Assembly (NCBI GenBank): GCA_017466325.1
Contig: JAFTUK010000029.1
Coordinates: 24,098-88,097 of the forward strand
DNA length: 64,000 bases
Direction of reading: 5' to 3'
Origin: Bacteroidaceae bacterium
GTDB taxonomy: Bacteria; Bacteroidota; Bacteroidia; Bacteroidales; Bacteroidaceae
The notes beneath the pieces are model-generated. The model was given only the letters and a program-made list of their open reading frames with translations, did not search any database and was not told the DNA's origin. Made by a program: the position numbers and the translations under genes. Positions within the stretch are counted from its first letter, which is position 1; each line of letters opens with the position of its first letter. Positions 13,089-50,876 of this stretch are shown piece after piece.

Positions 13089-14294
13089 TTAATGGCAATG
13101 GCAACACTGTTTCTTCTTTCTCAAGCCGAGTTTGGGGAGGACGAGGGCATTGACAAGCAGAAGCAGGAGCAAGCCCGTGCATATCCAACTGAACACGCCG
13201 GCATGCTCATCGTGGCAGGAATGTACCTCCTTCAACTGATAGAGGAAATCTACCATACCGGAGAACTGGAGCATGTCGATGAGATAGCCGAAGGCCATGG
13301 CACCGAGAACTATAGAAAGGATATAAACCAGCATGGTGCGCAATCCCAAGGAACGGCGGATGAGAAGCATGGATGCGAAGTTGCATGCAGGTCCCGCCAT
13401 GAGCATAACCAGGGCGGCACCCGGCGTGAGGCCCTTCATCATCAAGGCCACGGCAATGGGTATGCTGCCCGTAGCACAGAGATACATGGGCATGGCTATG
13501 CAAAGGACAAGGAGCATGCTGGCAAGCGTATTGCCCTGGAAGACGGCAAAATATTCCGTGGGAACAAGCACCGTGATTGCGGCGGCCACAACCAAACCTA
13601 TTACCAACCATTTGCCTATGTCTTCCATCATGTCCACATAGGCATAGGTCAGTGCTTCCTTGATCTTGGTGAAGAAACTCTTGTGACTATGGCAAGCATC
13701 CTCTGCCTTCTTCTCTTCCGAATGGCAATGGCAAACGTGCTCAGCCTCCTCCTTATGTGAGTGGCAACAGCAGGAATGTTCTTCTGCCTTCTCTTCCTCC
13801 GAATGGCAATGGCAAACGTGCTCTGCCTCTTCCTTATGTGAGTGGCAACAGCAGGAATGTTCTTCGGTCTTCTTTTCCTCCGAATGGCAACAACATTTAT
13901 TCTCTGGTTCTACCTTGTCCACGATGACACCGCCGAAGATGGCCGTAAACAGGGCGGCTATGGGGCGCACTATGGCAAAGGGGAGTCCCATGAGGGAGAA
14001 TGTGGCTATGATGGAATCCACACCCGTCTGCGGGGTGGCAATGAGGAAAGACACCACGGCGCCCTTGGAGGCACCTTCTTTCCTGAGCGACATGACCGTG
14101 GGTATCACTCCGCACGAGCACAAAGGCAGGGGTATGCCCAGCAGGGCGGCATTGAGCACGCTACGGAAGGACTTGCGCGAAAGATACTTGGTATAGAACT
14201 TGCCTGGCACGAAGGCATGCATCAGGCCTGCCAGCAGAAAGCCCAGCAGCAGGTAGGGCGACATGCCGGTAATCAGATAAACAACTTCTTGCAT
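13089..14294 (-). CDS. SO_0444-family Cu/Zn efflux permease with His/Cys-rich repeat
   Basis: 401 residues from 14294 (MQEVVYLITGMSPYLLLGF). About eight membrane segments form two permease halves, with GIPLPLCSCGVIP and MYLCATGSIPIAVALM as matching motifs. Between them is a cytosolic loop of about 75 residues packed with CCCHSH and CHCHSEE, built from 27-residue tandem repeats, presumably a metal-binding region. The C-terminus ends in CCHCH. Members of this family (SO_0444-like) are annotated as copper/zinc efflux transporters. A Fur-family regulator lies close upstream with only the orphan MNT gene between, which suggests, but does not prove, metal-responsive control. Confidence 0.82.
   Translation of the reverse strand: MQEVVYLITGMSPYLLLGFLLAGLMHAFVPGKFYTKYLSRKSFRSVLNAALLGIPLPLCSCGVIPTVMSLRKEGASKGAVVSFLIATPQTGVDSIIATFSLMGLPFAIVRPIAALFTAIFGGVIVDKVEPENKCCCHSEEKKTEEHSCCCHSHKEEAEHVCHCHSEEEKAEEHSCCCHSHKEEAEHVCHCHSEEKKAEDACHSHKSFFTKIKEALTYAYVDMMEDIGKWLVIGLVVAAAITVLVPTEYFAVFQGNTLASMLLVLCIAMPMYLCATGSIPIAVALMMKGLTPGAALVMLMAGPACNFASMLLIRRSLGLRTMLVYILSIVLGAMAFGYLIDMLQFSGMVDFLYQLKEVHSCHDEHAGVFSWICTGLLLLLLVNALVLPKLGLRKKKQCCHCH
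13720..13881 (-). repeat. Two tandem copies of an 81-bp coding repeat in the metal permease
   Basis: Positions 13720-13800 and 13801-13881 are near-identical, with a partial third copy at the left (13681-13719). Each unit encodes 27 residues containing HSEE, SCCCHSH and EHVCHC. The copy number is likely to vary by recombination. Confidence 0.8.
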
Positions 14295-14321
14295 ACGTGT
14301 AGTAAATAATGTTTCCACGTG

Positions 14322-14329
14322 CAAAGGTA
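14322..14329 (-). promoter_or_regulatory. -7 box of the metal permease gene
   Basis: TACCTTTG on the minus strand, 27 bases before the chosen start at 14294. It supports this start over a longer reading that would begin upstream of the box. Confidence 0.55.
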
Positions 14330-14379
14330 CACCGAAGTCCTTGCAAGTGAAAAGCAAAAGGGGGGCTATGGGATGACGG

Positions 14380-14451
14380 TTATCTGTGAAGAATAGAATC
14401 ATCTATCTGCTTGAAGAGCGACAATATGATTTCATCCCTTTCAGAACACAT
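14380..14451 (-). pseudogene. Stub of a possible HEPN (HepT) partner of the MNT gene
   Basis: An ATG at 14451 overlaps the last codons of the MNT gene and opens a 23-codon frame (begins MCSERDEIILSL, ends DDSILHR) before TAA at 14382-14380. The position, the overlapping start and the acidic/hydrophobic helix-like beginning resemble the N-terminus of HepT toxins, which normally follow mntA. No continuation is seen in the other frames before the permease promoter. I infer a truncated or deleted hepT; the stub is too short to prove homology. Confidence 0.4.
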
Positions 14452-14737
14452 ACACGCCATCCCTTTCTATTTGTTTCTCCAGCAACTTATTCATATTGTG
14501 GTGTCTCCTGATAACATCCACAGAACACCCGAACAGGTTTTCCAGAAACTGCTTCAATGCTACCAGCACATAGATATCCGGTTCCATATCCACACAGACA
14601 TCCACGTCGCTTTCAGCGTCATGCTCGTTTCTGGCTACGGACCCAAAGATGCACAGAGAGCGGATTCCGAATTGCTGTTTCAGAACCGTCATGTGCTTCT
14701 TTGCCAATTCTATGTATTCATTTCTTGTTTTCATCAT
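14441..14737 (-). CDS. Minimal nucleotidyltransferase (MntA-like antitoxin), orphan
   Basis: 98 residues from 14737 (two consecutive ATGs; 97 from the second). It has the minimal nucleotidyltransferase signature GSVARNEHDAESDVDVCVDM: GS followed by the two aspartates of DxD, and a third acidic position near VDVIRR. In mntA-hepT modules the MNT protein neutralises the HEPN ribonuclease, for example by AMPylation. Here a full HEPN gene is absent and only a 23-codon stub overlaps its end. Transcription starts from a repeat-borne promoter so close to the ATG that the mRNA should be leaderless. Confidence 0.82.
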   Translation of the reverse strand: MMKTRNEYIELAKKHMTVLKQQFGIRSLCIFGSVARNEHDAESDVDVCVDMEPDIYVLVALKQFLENLFGCSVDVIRRHHNMNKLLEKQIERDGVYVF

Positions 14738-14738
14738 G

Positions 14739-14807
14739 TGCAAAGATACGATTAAGCGAGCGAAAAAACAAATCATATTTGATTTTTCCGAGCGTGAGTA
14801 CCTTAGA
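14739..14807 (-). promoter_or_regulatory. Dispersed 69-bp repeat carrying a complete promoter (copy 1)
   Basis: On the minus strand TTTG (14772-14769), exactly 20 bases, TATCTTTG (14748-14741), then the MNT ATG at 14737. By my hand alignment it matches the copy upstream of mtaB (50407-50475) at 62 of 69 positions with no gaps; the conserved distal part contains CGAGCGTGAGTA. With the -7 box 3 bases from the ATG, the predicted start site coincides with the start codon. Confidence 0.8.
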
Positions 14808-14823
14808 TTAACAACCAAAGTTG

Positions 14824-15267
14824 CTATTTAGAAGCACATTTCGGGCACAGACCCTTGACGATGAATTCCATGTCCCGGGCTTCAAAACCTTCGGGCAGGG
14901 CGATGTGGGGGATGGGCATATCCATCAGGCAGATGGTCTTTTGGCACGAGGTGCAGGTGAAGTGTACGTGGCCATGGCGGTGGTCATGACCGGGACAGGT
15001 GCAGAGACAATACTTCTGCATGCCCGAACCGTCGTCGATGGTGTGCAGGAGGCGTTTTTCCGCCAGCAGTGTCAGGGTGCGGAACACGCTGGAGTTGTCG
15101 GCCGTGACCATCTTCTCCATGATGTCCTGCAGGGAGAAGGCACCGCCGTGCATCTGCTCGATGATGGTCTTCAGCACCAGCAGGCGCACGGCGGTTATGC
15201 GGATGCCTGCCTCTAAGAGTATGGATTCGTATGTGGAGCGGGCGTGCATGGGCGCGGATGAGGGCAT
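14824..15267 (-). CDS. Fur-family transcriptional regulator
   Basis: 147 residues from the ATG at 15267, right after the ABC gene stop (TAATATG arrangement); a longer reading would need TTG inside that gene. An N-terminal winged helix (about 10-80, SLQDIMEKMVTADNSSVFRTLTLL) precedes a His-rich metal segment (CPGHDHRHGHVHFTCTSC) and a C-terminal CPKC, so two CxxC pairs for structural zinc. It is a metal-responsive repressor of the Fur/Zur/PerR group, but which metal it senses cannot be read. Being last in an operon with an ABC ATPase and a DUF5687 permease is unusual for Fur. Confidence 0.88.
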   Translation of the reverse strand: MPSSAPMHARSTYESILLEAGIRITAVRLLVLKTIIEQMHGGAFSLQDIMEKMVTADNSSVFRTLTLLAEKRLLHTIDDGSGMQKYCLCTCPGHDHRHGHVHFTCTSCQKTICLMDMPIPHIALPEGFEARDMEFIVKGLCPKCASK

Positions 15268-49045: not shown

Positions 49046-50404
49046 TCATCCGTTTTCCATTCCCACCATCGTTCCCTTCAGCGCCGTGCCGTCTTCGTTC
49101 CATTCGCCGAGGCGCACATCAACTATGGTATTGTCCACCATATCGCTGGAGGTGCCGTCAGGCAGGGTTATCTCCACACGTATGTAATTGTCGGTAAAGC
49201 CGTGCATGGTACGCTTACTCTTGCTATGCTCCAGCAGCACCGGCCGCACCTTGCCTATATATCTGTTGTAAAAGTCGTGGGTAATGCGCTCGCTGAGGTC
49301 AAGTATCTTCTGGCTCCTCTCCTTCTTCTCCTCGGGACGCACCTTGTGCGGAATCTCCAGAGCCTTGGTACCGGGGCGCTCGCTATAGGGGAAGACATGG
49401 TACTGTGCTACGGGCAGGGAAGCCATATAGTCGTATGCCTCCTGGAAGAGTTCCTCCGTTTCGCCACGGGTTCCCACGATAGTGTCCACGCCTATGAAGG
49501 CATCGGGCATAAGTTCCAGAACGCGCTCCACCTTGCTGCGGAACAGTGCCGTGTCGTACTTTCTGCGCATCAGGCGCAGCACCTCATCGCTTCCGCTCTG
49601 CAGGGGAATATGGAAATGCGGCATGAAGGCACGGCTCTTTGCACAGAACTGCAACACCTCGTCGGTGAGCAGGTTTGGCTCTATGCTGGATATGCGGTAT
49701 CGCTCTATACCCTCTACTGCATCCAGGGCCTTCAGCAAGTCCAGGAAACTCTCTCCCGTGGTCTTGCCGAAGTCTCCTATGTTCACTCCGGTGATAACTA
49801 TCTCCTTGGCACCTGCCATGGCAGCCTCGCGGGCTTGGGAAACCAGCAACTCTATACTGCCGTTGCGCGAGCGTCCACGTGCAAAGGGTATGGTACAGTA
49901 GGTGCAATAATAGTCGCAACCGTCCTGAACCTTCAGGAAATAGCGGGTTCTGTCTCCGCAGGAGCACGAAGGCATGAAGTTGCGTATGTCTGCCGTACGC
50001 ACGGTGCGATGCTCGTGTGCCGCCAGTTTGCGTTCCTCGGGCATCATCTGCATGCGTTCCAATATTGCATCCACTATCTGTCCTTTCTCGTTACTGCCCA
50101 GAACCAAGTCTACTCCCTCCATGGCCGAAACCTGCCCGGGTTTCAGTTGGGCATAGCACCCCGTCACCACCACAATGGCACCGGGATGGTTCCTGACCAG
50201 ACGATGTATGGCCTTGCGGCACTTGCTGTCCGCCACCTCTGTAACGCTACACGTATTTACCACACATATATCCGCTATCTCGCCCTTGCGAGCAGTACGC
50301 ACACCACGTGCCTTCAATTCCGCACCCATGGTACTCGTCTCTGCAAAGTTCAGTTTACAACCCAAGGTGTAATATACCGCTTTCTTGTCCTCAAACATGT
50401 TCAT
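49046..50404 (-). CDS. mtaB: tRNA t6A37 methylthiotransferase MtaB
   Basis: A 452-residue radical SAM methylthiotransferase. The N-terminal UPF0004 domain holds three cysteines (near 16, 51 and 85: TLGCKLN, NTCSVTEVADSKCRKA, VVTGCYAQ), the radical SAM triad is in GCDYYCTYCTIPFARGRSR (about 159-177), and a TRAM domain ends the protein. It converts t6A37 to ms2t6A in tRNAs reading ANN codons. The start at 50404 (a second ATG is at 50398) lies only 4 bases after the promoter -7 box, so the mRNA should be leaderless. Confidence 0.94.
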   Translation of the reverse strand: MNMFEDKKAVYYTLGCKLNFAETSTMGAELKARGVRTARKGEIADICVVNTCSVTEVADSKCRKAIHRLVRNHPGAIVVVTGCYAQLKPGQVSAMEGVDLVLGSNEKGQIVDAILERMQMMPEERKLAAHEHRTVRTADIRNFMPSCSCGDRTRYFLKVQDGCDYYCTYCTIPFARGRSRNGSIELLVSQAREAAMAGAKEIVITGVNIGDFGKTTGESFLDLLKALDAVEGIERYRISSIEPNLLTDEVLQFCAKSRAFMPHFHIPLQSGSDEVLRLMRRKYDTALFRSKVERVLELMPDAFIGVDTIVGTRGETEELFQEAYDYMASLPVAQYHVFPYSERPGTKALEIPHKVRPEEKKERSQKILDLSERITHDFYNRYIGKVRPVLLEHSKSKRTMHGFTDNYIRVEITLPDGTSSDMVDNTIVDVRLGEWNEDGTALKGTMVGMENG

Positions 50405-50406
50405 GT

Positions 50407-50475
50407 TGCAAAGTTACGATTAAGCGAGCGAAAAAGCAAAAGAATTTTGATTTTTCCGAGCGTGAGTAACTTAGA
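50407..50475 (-). promoter_or_regulatory. Dispersed 69-bp repeat carrying a complete promoter (copy 2)
   Basis: On the minus strand TTTG (50440-50437), exactly 20 bases, TAACTTTG (50416-50409), then the mtaB ATG at 50404. It matches 14739-14807 without gaps. The mtaB message should begin at or one base before the start codon. Confidence 0.82.
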
Positions 50476-50876
50476 CCGAAGGTCAGAGTTACGATTAAGC
50501 GAGCGATTTGCCAAATTTGCGATTAAGAGAGAGCAGAAAAATATTTTTTATGCCGAACGTGAGCAAATTGAAGCCTTTGCTTAAATTTATTTGAGCAAAT
50601 CCGAGCGTGAACACTTTGAAATCCACCAAAGAGTTCCAATGCATCAAGCAAGCAAGCGTGCTTCTTCACGAAAACAATTTGAGGCAATTTCTCAGGCAAA
50701 AACACATGCTCTTCCCGGAGTATATAGAAAAATAATAGTAGTACATACATGATATATAACATAAATATACGTAGAAGACCCAAATTAGGTTAACTTCGCT
50801 CTACAGAACACTACAACTGATATTCAGCGAGTTAGCAAAATAGTTGTAATGAAAAAGCAAAAAAATCTAAAAATAA
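50476..50876. other. Gap with decayed copies of the promoter repeat
   Basis: No gene. A second copy starts near 50487 (CAGAGTTACGATTAAGCGAGCG), with the promoter box altered from CAAAGTTA to CAGAGTTA. A third more divergent copy spans about 50517-50572 (GCGATTAAGAGAGAGC ... CCGAACGTGAGC) and a fragment ends near 50612 (CCGAGCGTGAAC). The rest (about 50620-50876) is AT-rich with no recognisable element. Confidence 0.7.

What the first reader, a model, noticed from the sequence alone, without database searches (positions are those of the whole stretch)
14739..14807. Portable promoter repeat giving leaderless mRNA (two intact copies, plus decayed ones)
Seen: 14739-14807 and 50407-50475 are the same 69-bp element (62 of 69 positions by my hand count, no gaps). 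Both sit directly upstream of unrelated genes (an orphan MNT gene and mtaB) in the same orientation. Each contains TTTG-N20-TAnnTTTG, the full Bacteroidetes promoter consensus, and the -7 box ends 3-4 bases before the ATG. Two or three further copies at 50487-50612 have lost the box. Inference: a dispersed, non-coding promoter cassette that places a start site exactly at a start codon, a way to recruit genes without a leader.
Basis: partly seen in the sequence, partly recalled or inferred. Interest (0 to 1): 0.75.

Follow-up and report, generated by a model that had tools for sequence, protein, structure and literature searches.

The report
Hairpin repeats that take over promoters
Short hairpin-forming DNA repeats in gut Bacteroidales sit right at gene promoters and carry a complete promoter-like sequence of their own, so a new copy may be able to land on a promoter and replace it without moving the start of the message.

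Summary
The repeat is real: 62 of 69 positions agree. It belongs to a family with 99 covariance-model matches in this genome. Units have a 7-bp outer stem and a variable inner hairpin, both with strong covariation; 146 of 150 boxed units have TTTG 19-21 bp before TAnnTTTG. Arrays face gene starts: 30 of 37 here and 106 of 127 in named loci, against 15% and 20% for random intergenic points. The gene-proximal unit keeps the -7 box (31 of 32); internal units mostly do not (8 of 35).

Leaderlessness is not its doing: own-genome box-to-start distances are alike with and without the element, and 15 of 20 element-free mtaB orthologues already have the box within 2 nt of the window's 4-nt spacing. Named loci show a mild excess of short leaders (P=0.04). 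An older box often survives on the left, unit number differs from a close genome, and one nested insertion has its empty site there.

Best reading: a mobile REP/MITE-like hairpin unit that docks 3' of the TTTG of an existing -7 box and supplies the next promoter. Promoter activity, the insertion rule and the enzyme are unproven.

The parts
14741..14804 (-). Single unit upstream of the MNT gene: arm T' AAGGTAC (14798-14804), linker, variable hairpin, linker, arm and box GTATCTTTG (14741-14749). The variable base of the outer stem is G against T here, i.e. not Watson-Crick.
14741..14748 (-). -7 box TATCTTTG, 3 nt before ATG at 14737; -33 TTTG at 14769-14772, 20 bp upstream
14816..14824 (-). GCAACTTTG at the left end of the unit, a possible decayed older box (position by reading the 24-nt stretch 14801-14824)
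   Evidence: inference
50409..50472 (-). Gene-proximal unit A upstream of mtaB: T' AAGTTAC, linker, hairpin, linker, GTAACTTTG
50409..50416 (-). -7 box TAACTTTG, 4 nt before ATG at 50404; -33 TTTG at 50437-50440, 20 bp upstream
50473..50483 (-). Small joining hairpin ACC-TTCG-GGT region between units B and A
50484..50511 (-). 3' part of older unit B; its box now reads TAACTCTG (50484-50491)
50512..50582 (-). Nested unit C inserted in the hairpin loop of B; empty site in close relative G085; AAATTT on both sides
50583..50616 (-). 5' part of older unit B

Best explanation
A family of about 75-bp, directional, non-coding mobile repeats, REP/MITE-like in kind. In gene orientation a unit is: small hairpin, arm T', TCACGCTCGG, variable hairpin, GCTCGCTTAATC, arm T (GTAnC) and TTTG; T' is the reverse complement of T plus TT. 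The variable hairpin holds a -33 TTTG, and T plus TTTG is a -7 TAnnTTTG box 19-21 bp later. A new unit is placed 3' of a TTTG, by preference that of an existing -7 box. As it brings its own -33 and -7, the gene regains a full promoter at the same distance from its start and keeps its leader, so insertion should be nearly silent; the old box, now behind, is free to decay. SHOWN in sequence: anatomy, covariation, position bias, box kept in the proximal unit and lost behind it, older boxes on the left of part of the first units, unit-number differences between close genomes, one nested insertion with an empty site. INFERRED: that the box is the working promoter, that placement 3' of TTTG is the general rule, and that a folded single strand is the moving form. 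UNKNOWN: the enzyme.
For: Covariation: 90.7% of cells paired against 77.0% shuffled, 80 double changes against 21.9 (46 units). Promoter spacing kept in 146 of 150 boxed units. Array ends face a gene start in 30 of 37 and 106 of 127 cases, chance 15% and 20%; in two genomes of other families 12 of 13 and 9 of 10, chance 0.30-0.35 with that looser criterion; box-less relatives of the unit only 2 of 8. Box intact in 31 of 32 proximal and 8 of 35 internal units; proximal units score 52.2 bits against 34.9 for the others. TTTG lies 5-16 nt left of T' in 39 of 89 first units, against 151 of 1685 control windows; 29 of the 39 are TAnnTTTG. mtaB: G085 has one more proximal unit with its own arm and box before the same CAAC-ATG; flippase gene: two units in G000, one in G085, same leader, older TACCTTTG on the left. 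trmD: element-free G004 and G063 have the box at the same 9 nt as G000. Nested unit C: empty site in G085.
Against: No expression data. 50 of 89 first units show no TTTG at the left, and the split into first and later units is a rough pattern rule. Where unit number differs (10 of 17 loci with a measurable gap) recombination between units would do as well, and in several of them the missing unit is not the proximal one; for mtaB, loss in G000 instead of gain in G085 is possible. At cysS, trmD and lpxB most element-free orthologues have no box within 80 nt, and the guaB spacing of G000 (34) differs from most others (median 26). At L032 G085 has neither unit nor box. 17 of 41 own arrays had no orthologue in the G085 stretches fetched. 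At cysS inner hairpins changed places between genomes while arms stayed, so parts are also exchanged.
Confidence: 0.68

Rival explanations
1. One reading: a portable promoter whose point is to recruit genes and to start transcription exactly at the start codon.
For: Both window copies end 3-4 nt before ATG; short spacing somewhat more frequent with the element in the named loci (17 of 90 against 12 of 131, P=0.04); lpxB has the element in G000 and G004 while 0 of 27 element-free orthologues have a box.
Against: Most units lie 18 nt or more from the start; no difference in own loci (4 of 28 against 5 of 40); element-free mtaB orthologues have the same short spacing (15 of 20).
Confidence: 0.12
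2. No mobility of its own: an old repeat at promoters that spreads and changes number only by recombination, unequal crossing over and gene conversion; the box is kept because promoters are.
For: Whole-unit number differences between G000 and G085 at shared loci; exchange of inner hairpins at cysS.
Against: Nested unit C with an empty site in G085; units at the same gene in some genus members and not in others; presence in other families of the order.
Confidence: 0.12
3. A regulatory site: the conserved linkers are operators of a transcription factor, or the hairpins act in RNA as attenuators or terminators.
For: Very conserved linkers, one of them in the -33/-7 spacer; tandem sites behind promoters.
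Against: Patchy presence at orthologous genes; the genes downstream are of many kinds; the units lie upstream of the box and so are not in its transcript; one-sided changes in the stems are few (12 of 644 cells, 14 G-T cells), which speaks for DNA; no Rfam family in the window but 5S rRNA at gathering scores, and only a chance-level match in the one array searched below them.
Confidence: 0.08

Closest known systems
REP / BIME elements moved by TnpA_REP (RAYT); GTAG- or CGTC-tagged palindromes (PMC8266576 passages; PMC3733652 one passage)
   Same: Short palindromic intergenic repeats in many copies, often in tandem, thought to move as folded single strands.
   Different: No GTAG or CGTC before the hairpin; all units of an array point the same way; carries a full promoter at gene starts; no Y1 transposase in the own genome and no association in the genus.
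IS608 and the IS200/IS605 family (PMC5934647 passages)
   Same: IS608 inserts 3' of a tetranucleotide that stays at the left flank and reads its target by base pairing with a guide next to a hairpin; here a unit follows TTTG and an arm matches the old box.
   Different: No transposase gene in the unit, arm of 7 nt, TTTG instead of TTAC, no enzyme known.
BrickBuilt MITE of Porphyromonas gingivalis (PMC4596501 abstract and one section)
   Same: Intergenic repeat element of a Bacteroidales species with promoter activity (tested in E. coli).
   Different: 23-bp minisatellite with leader and tail, 19 copies, 49-591 nt from coding sequences, bidirectional promoters; the present unit sits at the -7 box and points one way.
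Mobile promoters / promoter reuse (search listing only; concept otherwise recalled)
   Same: Promoter sequences found in several copies in a genome.
   Different: Here a defined, covarying hairpin unit that stacks on existing promoters.
Integron attC sites (recalled)
   Same: Outer complementary boxes, conserved inner parts and a variable terminal hairpin.
   Different: No gene cassettes between units, other ends; integrases were not searched for.

Membership tests
REP element (RAYT-associated) | Palindromic intergenic repeat in many copies | tested here: met
REP element (RAYT-associated) | GTAG (or CGTC) tetranucleotide directly before the hairpin | tested here: not met
   Alignment A1 has CTCGG before the inner hairpin; the feature is as stated in PMC8266576
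REP element (RAYT-associated) | Y1-type transposase in the genome | tested here: not met
   0 matches to PF01797 in G000, which is 88% complete; over the cut-off in 2 of 15 element-rich and 3 of 12 element-free genomes among G001-G036
IS200/IS605 derivative | Insertion 3' of a fixed short target kept at the left flank | tested here: inconclusive
   TTTG left of T' in 39 of 89 first units, 9% in control windows
IS200/IS605 derivative | Guide-type pairing with the target | tested here: inconclusive
   Variable base of left box equals right box in 38 of 45 usable of 81 first junctions, shuffled mean 15.0; duplication or conversion not excluded
MITE of a DDE transposon | Terminal inverted repeats and fixed-length target duplication | tested here: inconclusive
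   Outer arms are inverted repeats of 7 nt inside the unit; one nested insertion shows AAATTT on both sides, other junctions differ
Rfam structured RNA | Match to a curated family | tested here: not met
   Window: only 5S rRNA at gathering scores; one array of L037: best match chance level; other arrays not searched
Primary sigma (Bacteroidetes) promoter | TTTG near -33 and TAnnTTTG at -7 | tested here: met
   146 of 150 boxed units have TTTG 19-21 bp before TA; consensus from PMC7366714
Primary sigma (Bacteroidetes) promoter | Transcription starts from it | not testable with these tools
   no expression data held

The most novel reading that the evidence does not exclude
A promoter-homing element: the 7-nt arm T' is a built-in DNA guide that pairs with the -7 box of the target promoter, the stretch melted in an open transcription complex; the unit is inserted just 3' of that box and rebuilds the promoter, so that insertion into essential promoters is silent. 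The match of old box, arm and new box (left equals right in 38 of 45 usable first junctions, shuffled mean 15; arm equals right in 40 of 45) would be the trace of guided targeting; where left and right differ, the arm fits the right box in 16 of 17 cases.
Probability: 0.22. Interest if true: 0.9.

Novelty: new variant of a known kind. Interest (0 to 1): 0.7.

Why it matters
If right, this is a selfish repeat that found a safe harbour in a dangerous place, the core promoter of housekeeping genes, by carrying a replacement for what it breaks. It would mean that core promoters in a major rumen and gut lineage are overwritten again and again while transcription starts stay put, and it poses a testable question: what enzyme moves a 75-bp hairpin, and does it read the target by base pairing. 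It also warns that covarying intergenic hairpins next to start codons need not be riboregulators.

Tried and rejected
Leaderless cassette as a general property: rejected, with a mild excess of short spacing in the named loci left standing. Y1/RAYT transposase as the mover: no match in the own genome, no association in the genus. Known RNA family: none found where searched. A 9-bp target duplication of GTAnCTTTG as the only rule: rejected, because left and right box differ in 7 of 45 first and 10 of 45 later usable junctions and the arm fits the right one in 16 of these 17. A swap test of the inner hairpin on 187 units of mixed length was not convincing (4.31 of 9 pairs, swaps 4.16, highest swap 4.31), as arms were out of register; 46 ungapped units settled it. 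A first, cruder gene caller gave 22 of 36 and 87 of 128 and was replaced by a coding-potential caller, which still misses the short MNT gene and so counts the window's MNT unit as far. Literature: nothing on this repeat in the listings (open-licence PMC only).

Rows dropped before counts: 1 of 38 and 7 of 134 arrays (locus edge or no 3' end); 238 raw units to 187 unique with a recognisable first linker; 87 unique 64-nt units to 46 that differ at more than 4 sites; orthologues without a start found: 5, 0, 1, 1, 1 of 30. The 113 named loci were picked by a pattern that demands TAnCTTTG, so their box counts are biased; the own-genome counts are not selected that way except that the BLAST query held a box.

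Full report
WHAT WAS CLAIMED AND WHAT IS THERE. The two 69-bp copies agree at 62 of 69 positions, lie upstream of the MNT gene and mtaB, and each holds TTTG-N20-TAnnTTTG with the box 3 and 4 nt before the first ATG. The material at 50484-50616 is one older unit interrupted by a second unit.

A LARGE FAMILY. BLAST with one copy gives 65 matches at E<=10 in the own genome (G000, 2.59 Mb in 56 contigs, 88% complete). A covariance model from 46 units gives 99 at E<=0.01; at least 8 of these, the ones fetched and read, are a box-less subfamily. In a search of relatives 27 of 61 genomes, the own included, had a match at E<=0.001. With the model 12 of 119 genomes drawn from the order, the own included, had one at E<=1e-4. 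Two viral contigs carry one unit each.

ANATOMY. In gene orientation: arm T' (mostly AAGnTAC or TAGnTAC), TCACGCTCGG, a variable hairpin of 23-48 nt (26 nt in 98 of 187 units), GCTCGCTTAATC, arm T (GTAnC) and TTTG. Units in arrays are joined by small hairpins such as ACC-TTCG-GGT. On 46 ungapped units 90.7% of the cells of a 14-pair structure are paired (77.0% after shuffling), with 80 double changes against 21.9 and a covariation score of 0.342 against 0.095; sliding the partners by 1-3 columns leaves 34-49% paired. One-sided changes are few (12 of 644 cells; 14 cells are G-T); I read that as a sign of DNA rather than RNA, which is inference. The variable pair of the outer stem takes three states: GC 70, TA 51, AT 49 of 187 units. 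A swap test of the outer stem gives 6.18 of 7 pairs against 5.55; the same kind of test of the inner hairpin on units of mixed length was not convincing.

A PROMOTER BY CONSENSUS. The published primary sigma consensus is TAnnTTTG at -7 and TTTG near -33 (PMC7366714, passages). Of 150 boxed units 146 have TTTG 19-21 bp before TA. Array ends face a called gene start within 150 bp on the same strand in 30 of 37 cases here and 106 of 127 in the named loci; random intergenic points do so in 15% and 20%; the opposite direction gives 13 of 38 and 17 of 134. Two genomes of other families, chosen because the model found them, repeat this: 12 of 13 and 9 of 10, with boxes in 13 of 13 and 10 of 10. Nine further own arrays give 7 of 9 (box in 8), while eight box-less copies give 2 of 8. 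With that looser start criterion random points give 0.30-0.35 and the opposite direction 5 of 13, 3 of 10, 3 of 9 and 3 of 8.

THE PROXIMAL BOX. TAnnTTTG is intact in 31 of 32 proximal units and 8 of 35 internal ones here, and in 120 of 124 and 31 of 70 in the named loci, where the search pattern itself required the box. In the own genome internal boxes often read TCTG (9 of 35, plus 4 shifted by one base). Proximal units fit the family model better than the units behind them (52.2 against 34.9 bits in 26 arrays, 57.7 against 43.1 in 56).

LEADERLESSNESS. In own loci the median box-to-start distance is 32.5 with and without the element (<=10 nt: 4 of 28 and 5 of 40). In the named loci it is 31 and 36 (17 of 90 and 12 of 131; P=0.04), a mild excess of short spacing with the element. 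At mtaB 15 of 20 element-free orthologues have the box within 2 nt of the window's spacing. At trmD element-free G004 and G063 have the same 9 nt as G000, but only 6 of 24 element-free orthologues have any box within 80 nt; at cysS it is 7 of 26, at guaB 23 of 25 (but mostly 23-30 nt against 34 in G000), at lpxB 0 of 27. In B. thetaiotaomicron about 3.7% of 5' UTRs are under 10 nt (PMC7366714, passage).

HOW IT GETS THERE. First units often still show an older box on their left: TTTG 5-16 nt before T' in 39 of 89, against 151 of 1685 control windows; 29 of the 39 are TAnnTTTG. The rule that splits first from later units is rough and lets some internal units through. G085, the genome of locus L086, has downstream flanks 84-100% identical to G000, 19 of 24 of them above 94% (17 of 41 own arrays had no orthologue in the stretches fetched). 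Of 17 loci with a measurable gap 10 differ by more than 20 bp. At mtaB G085 has one more proximal unit, with another arm and box, before the same CAAC-ATG; the flippase gene has two units in G000 and one in G085 before the same leader; rfbD differs by a proximal unit too, with a leader that is not identical; other loci differ by units further back, which recombination explains as well. The unit nested at 50512-50582 is absent from G085, where the target reads AAATAAATTTGGCAAATC and contains TAAATTTG; in G000 AAATTT stands on both sides. At cysS the two hairpin types are in opposite order in the two genomes with the same arms, so inner parts are exchanged as well. At L032 G085 has neither unit nor box.

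A POSSIBLE GUIDE. Of 81 first junctions 45 are usable; the variable base of the left box equals that of the right box in 38 (shuffled mean 15.0, maximum 25) and the arm fits the right box in 40. For later units it is 35 and 45 of 45. Where left and right differ (7 and 10 cases) the arm fits the right box in 16 of 17. So arm and box appear to travel together and targets resemble them. Guided insertion would leave this, as in IS608, which inserts 3' of TTAC and reads its target by pairing (PMC5934647, passages). Duplication of the target followed by decay, or gene conversion, are not excluded. The Y1 transposase family of IS608 and RAYT is not found in G000 and does not go with the element in the genus (2 of 15 element-rich, 3 of 12 element-free genomes).

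VERDICT. Promoter activity, the rule of insertion and the enzyme remain to be shown.

Noticed in passing
L412, L416-L422 (own genome C31, C20, C1, C8, C42, C53): A box-less subfamily (outer arms GAATCTGC / GCAGATTT) lies in other composite repeats; gene start ahead in 2 of 8, about the chance level.
   Followed up: partly
window 42944 and 63733; flanks of arrays in L041, L044, L048, L051: A second dispersed palindrome, GGACACGGCATGCCGTGTCC, next to several arrays.
   Followed up: no
L173, L174 (IMG/VR contigs): One unit each in contigs filed as viral; L174 has a TATCTTTG box on its left and a 54-aa ORF 18 nt downstream.
   Followed up: partly
L036 2950-3240 and L362 9260-9560 (cysS): Two inner hairpin types in opposite order in two close genomes while arms and joining hairpin stay.
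   Followed up: partly
arrays of the own genome, e.g. L040, L042, L044, L047: Internal boxes recurrently changed from TTTG to TCTG at the same base; cause unknown.
   Followed up: partly
L056 (lpxB): In G000 lpxB stands behind a unit array with other DNA upstream, while the 27 element-free orthologues examined have no box within 80 nt.
   Followed up: partly
window 13089-14402: ArsP-type permease (PF03773) with a His/Cys-rich repeated insert, near a FUR-family gene at 14824-15249.
   Followed up: no
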